Part shown: one piece after another, positions 37,058-39,586 of the stretch
Layout: the number at the start of each line of letters is the position of its first letter
Numbering within the stretch: the first letter of the stretch is position 1
NCBI RefSeq assembly: GCF_024713945.1
Contig: NC_134677.1
Span: forward strand, 9,066,001 to 9,130,000
From: Dermatophagoides farinae
Taxonomy: Eukaryota; Arthropoda; Arachnida; Sarcoptiformes; Pyroglyphidae
Direction of reading: 5' to 3'
DNA length: 64,000 bases
Notes under the pieces: model-generated
Database searches by the model: none
Told to the model about the DNA's origin: nothing
Seen by the model: only the letters and a program-made list of their open reading frames with translations
Translations under genes and position numbers: made by a program

Positions 37058-39586
37058 TCAGTTATCGCCAGCATCTGGCTGCTCATCACCATCACCTTGT
37101 GTGTCGGATGTCCAAAGCTATTGCAAGAAAAAGACAAAAACAATAAAAATCGTGGTTCGATACAACAAAATCAATCATCACTTACAGTTAAGTTGTCACG
37201 AAGAAGCTGCATAATTAAAGTGCTGTCTTTGTATGAATCTTCATTGAGTGTATCCAACTCGGCTATGGCATCATCAAAGGCCTGTATTCAGTTATTGTGT
37301 GCAACAAAAAAAAAGAAAACAAATCAATTATAAAACAAACTAATTATAATCAAAAAGAAAGGGGAAATGAAATAAATTAGCTGAACAAAAGAAACAATTT
37401 CGTTTTCGGTGAACACGCGTAATTGTTAGAAGGATGGTGGTGGTGGTGGTGGTTATTTCTCGAATGGGTTCGAAAATTCGGCTTACGATGAAAAAAAAAT
37501 AAAATAAATCCTATTTCAGTGAATGAAGCAACATATCAAGATGTCAAGAGTGAGAAGGAGAATAGAAAAATCTTCATGTATGACAAGGCAATAGCGGCGT
37601 TGGCACGTGTAGTATTATAGTAGTATGATTAATTCTCGTTTGGCTTGGTTATCATTATTTTTTTTGGAGCACAGCGTCAATCAGTCAGTCATGGATGGAT
37701 TTGTAAGGATACCAAACATTGATTGTTGGAAACAAATGTTATTGCCTAATTAATTAAGGAAAAGAATAATCTTTTGTCATGTTTTCTTGGTCGTTCAGTT
37801 TCGTCAGAATTTATATATAGAAATTCCCCGGCAATCTATTTCATTTCGATAATAATGATATTGTCCTATTTTTGTGTACCGTACGGGTTTATGTGTGTGT
37901 GTGTGTTGTGTGTGCGATTTACCTGTTTGGCCAGATGACAGGCGCGATCAGCAGCATTCAATATTTCATAATAAAAAACTGAATAATTCAACGCCAAACC
38001 AAGACGAATAGGGTGTGTTGGCTGTAATTTAGATCTTGAAATGTCAAATGCTTCTTGATATGCTTTTTGGGCTTCATCAGCAACGTCTTGATATATATCA
38101 TTTGTTTAGGTGTTTTTTCGTTGATCATTAATCGATCATTATTAGTTGAGCAATAATATAATGGTATTTTGGTGGTATATAAGACATTAAATGAGTATTT
38201 ATAAGCAATGAATGAGCAACCACAACCAAACACCACCACCAATAATTCACACGTGACACATGAAGAACAACAAAATAGGAAATATAAACGAAATTCGAGT
38301 TTTGTATAAAGAAAAAACAAAATCAAATAATAAGGGATCCAAAAAGAAAAAAAATAGGAAAAAAGAAACGAAAAGAAAAAATGTTAGCAGAATCAAATTC
38401 AAAAATCATAATCACCTGCTTAGCAAGTTGACAAGCTTTGTCTGGCGAATTGAGAATCTCATAGAAAAACACCGAAAAGTTGAGTGCAAGACCAAGGCGA
38501 ATTGGGTGCGTAGGTTGCATCTTGCTTTTGGAGATGTCAAACGCCTCTTGGTAGGCCTTTTGCGATTCTTCAACCACACCTACAAAATTTGTTTTTCAAT
38601 TATTAAAATTCATTCATTCATACATCTTTTGCTTGACAACGTCAATGATTTTGATTAAACTATTAAACTATCCAGAGCTTATTATTACCCCTTCTATTTG
38701 CTGGCTGTGTAATAATTGTTTTTCTATCGAATAAAACAAGAGCTGCTGCTGCTATGTCAAATAAGAAAGCAATCTCTATTCATAATCATGATCAACAACA
38801 AAATATGGAATTAGGACTGATGACTTGCTCTAATAAATGATAAAATACATCTCTGCCATATACTACATATAATACAATAATAAAAACTAATTAATGATCA
38901 ACATTGTCTCTAATCTTTGATGGTTGTTTTTGTTGTTGTTGTTGTTGTTGCTGTCAAAATTGGACGAGAACGGGATAAAAAAAATGTTTCAAGCAATTAT
39001 AGAAGTGATCATCTCCGGTTTTTTCGGATTTTTGTTTGTTGTTGTTGTTGTTGTCGAATTGCTAATGAAAAACCATCAATTAATAGCGGAAATAAAGACT
39101 TACTCGTCCTTCGGTCACCAGTAGCCACTTCAGCCAAATATCGATAATAGTCACCCTTCATTTTCAAGTAAAAAACTTTACTTTCTGCATTGCTTGCTTT
39201 AGGAATCAGGTATTTGTCGAGAAGTGACTAGATATAGAGAGAATAAACGGTTATTACAATGATGGCAATGTTGTGGATGGATTAGCGCTTACCAATACAT
39301 CATAACAAATATCACGAAGTTCAACTTCGACCTTTTCACGATATTCACGTGCCATTTGTTGTTTACGTTCAGCTCCTTCGGTCTTCTGTTCGATAGATGA
39401 GATTACTCTCCATGATGATCGTCTTGCACCAACAACATTTTTGTATGCGACTGATAAAAGATTACGTTCTTCATTCGATAATTCGGTGCCGGTTTCGGTG
39501 ACTTGTTTCATGGCAGCAGCCATATCATCATATCTTTCGGCCTGTTCGGCGAGCTTGGCGCGTTGTACGAGTTCTTCACGTTCCAT
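37058..39586 (-). CDS. 14-3-3zeta: 14-3-3 zeta protein with two alternative copies of one exon
   Basis: Phosphoserine/phosphothreonine-binding dimeric adaptor of the cytosol. Coding exons on the minus strand: 39586-39293, 39227-39104, one of 38579-38416 or 38086-37923, 37281-37186, and 37117-37058. Either choice gives 245 residues, the normal family length. Hallmarks: N-terminal dimer helices ([20 protein letters not shown]), the 14-3-3 signature [16 protein letters not shown], the second signature region ([15 protein letters not shown]), and an acidic tail [15 protein letters not shown]. Basic binding-groove residues K and R in [11 protein letters not shown] and R in [10 protein letters not shown] are present. 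A splice acceptor (TTTCATCAG) lies 9 nt before the ATG, so 5' UTR exons lie further upstream. The gene is strongly conserved and unbroken. Confidence 0.95.
37923..38086 (-). other. 14-3-3zeta: 14-3-3 alternative exon, distal copy
   Basis: 164 nt exon with an acceptor ending CAAG and donor GTAAAT, in phase with the same neighbours as the proximal copy. It encodes 55 residues beginning [11 protein letters not shown] and ending [10 protein letters not shown]. It matches the proximal copy at 43 of 55 residues by eye. It is the second copy in transcript order. Confidence 0.85.
38416..38579 (-). other. 14-3-3zeta: 14-3-3 alternative exon, proximal copy
   Basis: 164 nt exon with acceptor TTTTGTAG and donor GTGATT. 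It encodes 55 residues beginning [11 protein letters not shown] and ending [10 protein letters not shown], closer to the standard animal zeta sequence than the distal copy is. Including both copies would shift the frame (328 nt), so they must be mutually exclusive. Confidence 0.88.

What the first reader, a model, noticed from the sequence alone, without database searches (positions are those of the whole stretch)
37923..38579. Two mutually exclusive copies of one 14-3-3 exon
Two adjacent 164 nt exons have the same phase and flanking splice logic. They encode 55-residue versions of the same helical segment (43 of 55 identical by eye), with substitutions at the start of the segment (SVVEES / NVADEA), in LNFSVFF / LNYSVFY, and at SPDKACQL / AADRACHL. 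Using both would shift the frame, so one of the two must be chosen. Insect 14-3-3 zeta (leonardo) is also known to use alternative exons. Whether this is shared ancestry or independent duplication in mites is open. The changes lie near the ligand groove and could alter partner choice.
Basis: partly seen in the sequence, partly recalled or inferred. Interest (0 to 1): 0.8.

Follow-up and report, generated by a model that had tools for sequence, protein, structure and literature searches.

The report
Alternative exon pair in mite 14-3-3zeta
A dust-mite gene for the signalling adaptor 14-3-3zeta carries two interchangeable versions of one exon, an arrangement already known from flies, and the second version lacks a serine that is a stress-kinase target in the human protein.

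Summary
On the minus strand lies a six-exon 14-3-3zeta gene (coding 39586-37058) with two adjacent 164-nt copies of the exon for residues 140-194, both with GT/AG sites and matching phases; 43 of 55 residues agree. Either copy alone gives 245 aa; both or neither gives a premature stop. Both look constrained: 38 of 54 base differences are at third positions, and 0 of 5000 neutral simulations kept 43 residues. The species is most likely Dermatophagoides farinae.

The kind is known: Drosophila 14-3-3zeta has three mutually exclusive exons, and a dust-mite proteome table lists "zeta isoform X2; X3". A is probably the conserved copy, B the diverged one. Six reported ligand-contact residues are identical in both, so a groove change is weakly supported. 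The clearest difference is loss in B of Ser184-Pro185; Ser184 is a JNK site in human zeta.

A fly-like intron pairing exists, but rests on a GTG/CAC repeat and is ordinary once repeats are masked. Splicing itself, and common ancestry with the insect exons, could not be tested.

The parts
39293..39586 (-). 14-3-3zeta first coding exon (ATG at 39586), residues 1-98; 5' UTR not mapped
   Evidence: protein aligns without gaps to human zeta 1a37
39104..39227 (-). second coding exon, 124 nt, ends after the first base of codon 140; donor GTAAGT
38416..38579 (-). alternative exon A (164 nt, residues 140-194), conserved version with Ser184-Pro185
   Evidence: 50 of 55 residues identical to zeta chain 6nyb
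37923..38086 (-). alternative exon B (164 nt, residues 140-194), diverged version with Ala184-Ala185
   Evidence: 40 of 55 residues identical to zeta chain 6nyb
37186..37281 (-). shared downstream exon, 96 nt
37058..37117 (-). coding part of the last exon, 60 nt including stop; 3' UTR not mapped
38213..38277 (-). candidate pairing element in the A-B intron (weak; contains a GTG repeat)
   Evidence: ordinary once simple repeats are masked
37396..37462 (-). candidate partner element in the intron after exon B (weak; contains a CAC repeat); pairing would loop out exon B
   Evidence: ordinary once simple repeats are masked

Best explanation
This is the 14-3-3zeta gene of a dust mite, most likely Dermatophagoides farinae, with a two-member cluster of mutually exclusive exons. 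Shown from sequence: two old tandem copies of one exon, both under protein-level constraint, with the same length and phases, such that exactly one must be used to make a full protein. Inferred: the spliceosome picks A or B. Transcripts with both or neither would carry a stop 161 or 88 nt before the last junction and would probably be destroyed by nonsense-mediated decay. A is probably the ancestral, general form. B makes a 14-3-3zeta with unchanged reported ligand contacts but without Ser184-Pro185, so it should be insensitive to proline-directed (JNK-type) phosphorylation there. How the choice is enforced in the mite is not shown; competition between intron pairings, as in the fly gene, is a candidate only.
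For: Gene model and frame test; stop distances and splice sites; third-position excess 38 of 54, binomial p=4e-8; dN 0.157 with dS not estimable (saturated) by NG86 (the YN00 estimate failed). 0 of 5000 neutral simulations reach 43 identical residues (maximum 31) and 355 of 5000 are free of stops. With 6nyb as outgroup, B-specific changes 11, A-specific 1, chi2 8.33, p=0.004. The fly gene has three mutually exclusive exons; zeta isoforms X2/X3 are named in a dust-mite proteome table. Human zeta Ser184 is phosphorylated by JNK, releasing Bax; effects on other clients vary.
Against: No transcript data at all. The rate asymmetry is weaker with human zeta as outgroup (8 to 2, p=0.058) and absent with the mite epsilon paralogue (5 to 4, p=0.74). 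Both alternative acceptors have poor pyrimidine tracts (7 of 17), but so does the shared downstream exon (7 of 17), so this says nothing special about alternative use. Whether mite JNK acts on Ser184, and whether mites degrade such transcripts, is unknown.
Confidence: 0.9

Rival explanations
1. Exon choice is enforced by competing intron pairing as in Drosophila: an element between A and B pairs with one downstream of B, looping out B and favouring A.
For: The best duplex between these introns is -51.1 kcal/mol, stronger than each of 40 dinucleotide shuffles. A global fold gives about 39 expected pairs between the two elements (no control run). The downstream side of the docking site matches the published fly arrangement.
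Against: 2 of 200 and 3 of 220 same-geometry stretches of the same window do as well, as do 2 of 150 random partners for the A-B intron and 1 of 150 for the intron after B. With simple repeats masked the duplex falls to -29.9 and 107 of 220 controls match or beat it. The global fold also gives large pairing sums for the other intron pairs (43.2 and 30.7 against 48.3). No second species to test conservation.
Confidence: 0.2
2. The exon pair is an arthropod-wide inheritance, the same duplication as in insects.
For: The fly cluster appears to vary the same segment: a published 14-mer of fly exon 5c, read by me in one frame, gives Ser-Pro-Ala-Arg, which fits residues 184-187. Synonymous sites between A and B are near saturation (third base the same in 1 of 11 fourfold codons), so the duplication is old.
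Against: No insect alternative exon or exon boundary could be obtained. Saturation would also fit an older mite-lineage event. B shares Arg187 with the fly 14-mer but not Ser184-Pro185. Arg187 and His190 also occur in a distant 14-3-3 fragment (L019), so they are not diagnostic.
Confidence: 0.4
3. B is a non-functional, decaying exon copy.
For: B has diverged faster than A with the 6nyb outgroup, and its acceptor region is poor in pyrimidines.
Against: Open frame, GT/AG sites and correct phases kept; substitutions concentrated at third positions; 0 of 5000 neutral simulations preserve the protein as well.
Confidence: 0.03

Closest known systems
Drosophila 14-3-3zeta (leonardo) exon 5 cluster
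   Same: Same gene; mutually exclusive tandem exons in a cluster that appears to encode the same protein segment (inferred from one 14-mer); a candidate docking element downstream of the cluster.
   Different: The fly has three exons and reported pairing elements IE1/IE2/IEa (passages seen; the primary paper, Yang et al. 2011, was not seen). The mite has two exons and pairing is unproven. Mite B lacks Ser184-Pro185, whereas the fly exon 5c 14-mer appears to keep Ser-Pro.
14-3-3 protein zeta isoforms X2/X3 of Dermatophagoides
   Same: Named in a proteome table for a D. pteronyssinus extract searched against Dermatophagoides and yeast entries (passages of PMC10754955).
   Different: The passages do not say in what the isoforms differ or which Dermatophagoides species the entries belong to, so identity with A/B is inferred.
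Human 14-3-3zeta (1a37)
   Same: Gapless alignment over 245 residues; reported ligand contacts in the segment kept in both mite forms.
   Different: To my knowledge (recalled) vertebrates vary this segment between separate genes, not exons.

Membership tests
14-3-3 zeta | Full-length homology to zeta rather than epsilon | tested here: met
   Best solved relatives are zeta chains 6nyb (E 9e-144) and 1a37 (E 2.5e-131); a separate epsilon-like gene (naming by my reading) is on contig C7
Mutually exclusive exon cluster | Adjacent homologous exons with same phase and length | tested here: met
   164 nt each, 43/55 aa, same phases
Mutually exclusive exon cluster | Only single inclusion gives an open frame | tested here: met
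   Both: 226 aa then stop; neither: 141 aa then stop
Mutually exclusive exon cluster | Transcripts show exactly one copy | not testable with these tools
   No RNA data
Drosophila-type docking/selector splicing control | Intron complementarity beyond genomic background | tested here: inconclusive
   -51.1 kcal/mol; 0 of 40 shuffles but 2 of 200 and 3 of 220 genomic controls as strong; after repeat masking 107 of 220
Drosophila-type docking/selector splicing control | Conservation of pairing across species | not testable with these tools
   No related arthropod genome could be obtained
Homology with the insect exon cluster | Exon copies group across species in a tree | not testable with these tools
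   Scans of viral contigs and genome contigs gave no arthropod exon; a text search for two residue strings gave 0 papers

The most novel reading that the evidence does not exclude
The pair is an arthropod-wide exon switch older than the split of chelicerates and insects that, in mites, toggles 14-3-3zeta between a JNK-releasable form (A) and a form refractory to Ser184 phosphorylation (B).
Probability: 0.2. Interest if true: 0.5.

Novelty: new member of a known kind. Interest (0 to 1): 0.3.

Why it matters
It suggests that the 14-3-3zeta exon switch studied in flies has a counterpart in a mite, giving a distant species in which to ask whether the switch and its RNA control are ancestral. Loss of Ser184-Pro185 in one version gives a specific, testable functional difference between the two forms. 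Otherwise it is ordinary alternative splicing.

Tried and rejected
Third exon copy: none in the window by tblastn. Genome-wide, each exon's DNA matched only itself, in a search that does not see even the sister copy; the family search shows no further zeta-like locus. Intronless copies as natural cDNA evidence: the full-length 14-3-3 frames on C13 and C16 are not copies of this gene, so they give no isoform evidence. U2/U12 incompatibility and too short an intron as exclusion mechanisms: the donors are GTGATT and GTAAAT and the A-B intron is 329 nt; judged by eye, neither applies. Intron pairing: strong against shuffles but explained by simple repeats. B as a gene conversion from epsilon: B is no closer to the epsilon segment than A is (33 against 34 of 55). 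Relatives for dating: viral-contig scans with the whole A protein and with exon B gave none, with exon A one distant fragment, L019; genome contigs gave three loci of 79, 70 and 55% identity, of which only L009 was looked at, L010 and L011 not. Literature: 10 of 10 searches used, aimed at the fly isoform names, listed 12 of 2,704 papers and nothing useful. The DOI that I recalled for the primary fly paper (Yang et al. 2011) is not held.

Full report
What is there. The window lies in a 62.4 Mb genome in 22 contigs. A fragment of a Der f 2-type gene in the same genome matches the solved Der f 2 chain 1ahk at 118 of 119 residues, with Der p 2 chains scoring lower, so the species is most likely Dermatophagoides farinae. 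On the minus strand, 39586 to 37058, is a 14-3-3 gene whose product aligns without gaps to human 14-3-3zeta and best to the zeta chain 6nyb. I take 6nyb to be from an insect expression host; that label is recalled. Coding exon lengths are 294, 124, 164 (A), 164 (B), 96 and 60 nt; the introns next to A and B are 524, 329 and 641 nt.

The two copies. A and B share 110 of 164 bases and 43 of 55 residues. Used alone, each gives 245 residues. Using both gives a stop after 226 residues, 161 nt before the last junction; using neither gives a stop after 141 residues, 88 nt before it. Thirty-eight of the 54 base differences are at third codon positions (binomial p=4e-8); dN is 0.157 and dS could not be estimated because it is saturated (NG86). 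Of 43 codons with the same residue 14 are the same codon. In 5000 simulations of neutral drift from A to the same base divergence, none kept 43 identical residues (maximum 31) and 355 were free of stops. Both copies are therefore old and both have been kept as protein-coding sequence.

Which copy is ancestral. A is 50 of 55 identical to the 6nyb chain and B is 40 of 55; with that outgroup B has 11 private changes and A one (p=0.004). With human zeta the counts are 8 and 2 (p=0.058), and with the mite epsilon-like paralogue 5 and 4 (p=0.74). A is probably the conserved form, but the result depends on the outgroup. The epsilon-like gene on C7 carries this segment in one uninterrupted frame, so introns at these two positions, and the duplication, are seen only in the zeta gene here.

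Function of the difference. The gapless alignment allows human numbering. Contacts reported for human zeta within the segment are Pro165, Ile166, Leu172, Asn173 and Glu180 (passage of PMC3690454) and Val176 (a docking residue list in PMC8833107). All six are the same in A and B. The changes at 174 and 178 are Phe to Tyr. A passage of PMC8455551 says that variable residues on the outer surface of the groove give target specificity, so an effect on partner choice is not excluded. The clearest change is Ser184-Pro185 in A to Ala184-Ala185 in B. The same review states that Ser184/186 of zeta and sigma is a JNK target whose phosphorylation releases Bax; a passage of PMC12459269 calls the effects of Ser184 phosphorylation variable between clients. 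That B escapes such control is inference.

How one copy is chosen. Passages of PMC6071210, PMC4174434 and PMC6027157 describe the Drosophila 14-3-3zeta exon 5 cluster: three mutually exclusive exons, with competing intron pairings and a docking site downstream. I looked for the same here. The best duplex is between 38277-38213 and 37462-37396, -51.1 kcal/mol, stronger than each of 40 dinucleotide shuffles; the other two intron pairs were marginal or ordinary (1 of 40 and 13 of 40 shuffles as strong). In a global fold of the region the two elements have about 39 expected pairs, but the other intron pairs also have large sums (43.2 and 30.7, against 48.3 for this intron pair), and no control was run on that fold. 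Genomic controls weaken the finding: 2 of 200 and 3 of 220 same-geometry stretches did as well, as did 2 of 150 random partners for the A-B intron and 1 of 150 for the intron after B; the controls come from one 64 kb window and are not independent. After masking simple repeats the duplex was ordinary, 107 of 220 as strong. I therefore do not claim the pairing mechanism.

Known or new. Mutually exclusive exons in 14-3-3zeta are established in flies. A proteome study of D. pteronyssinus extract, searched against Dermatophagoides and yeast entries, lists "14-3-3 protein zeta isoform X2; X3" (passages of PMC10754955); what those isoforms differ in was not seen. Of ten full-text searches, four bore on mites, ticks or chelicerates; their lists showed 12 of 12, 20 of 471, 12 of 15 and 10 of 19 papers, and I saw none on this exon pair. 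The library holds open-licence papers only, so this is weak evidence of absence. Whether the insect and mite pairs share one origin remains open. A published 14-mer of fly exon 5c, read by me in one frame, gives Ser-Pro-Ala-Arg and fits residues 184-187; this suggests that the same segment varies in both animals and that this fly form keeps the Ser-Pro that mite B has lost.

Verdict. It is a new member of a known kind with one specific functional lead, the missing Ser184-Pro185 in copy B.

Noticed in passing
window 60241-64000 (+): Ribosomal RNA genes: SSU 60241-62058, 5.8S 62528-62680, LSU from 62915 running off the window end; this fits the GC rise to 0.456 in the last 4 kb.
   Followed up: partly
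own genome C13:77528-78202 (L001) and C16:251101-251790 (L004): Full-length intronless 14-3-3 frames, clearly different from the mite zeta and epsilon-like genes, on contigs of 90 and 345 kb; GC of the 3.7 kb stretches held is 0.356 and 0.358, and the C16 stretch has three closely packed open frames. They may belong to another eukaryote in the assembly.
   Followed up: partly
L009 (genome contigs, filed under a bacterial MAG): An epsilon-like 14-3-3 gene, apparently with introns, sits in a contig filed under a Verrucomicrobiaceae MAG, so the contig is probably eukaryotic contamination.
   Followed up: no
window 38416-38579 against 37923-38086: Third-position GC differs between the copies: A 27 of 55, B 14 of 55; the first coding exon has 30 of 98. 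Could reflect different expression level or history.
   Followed up: no
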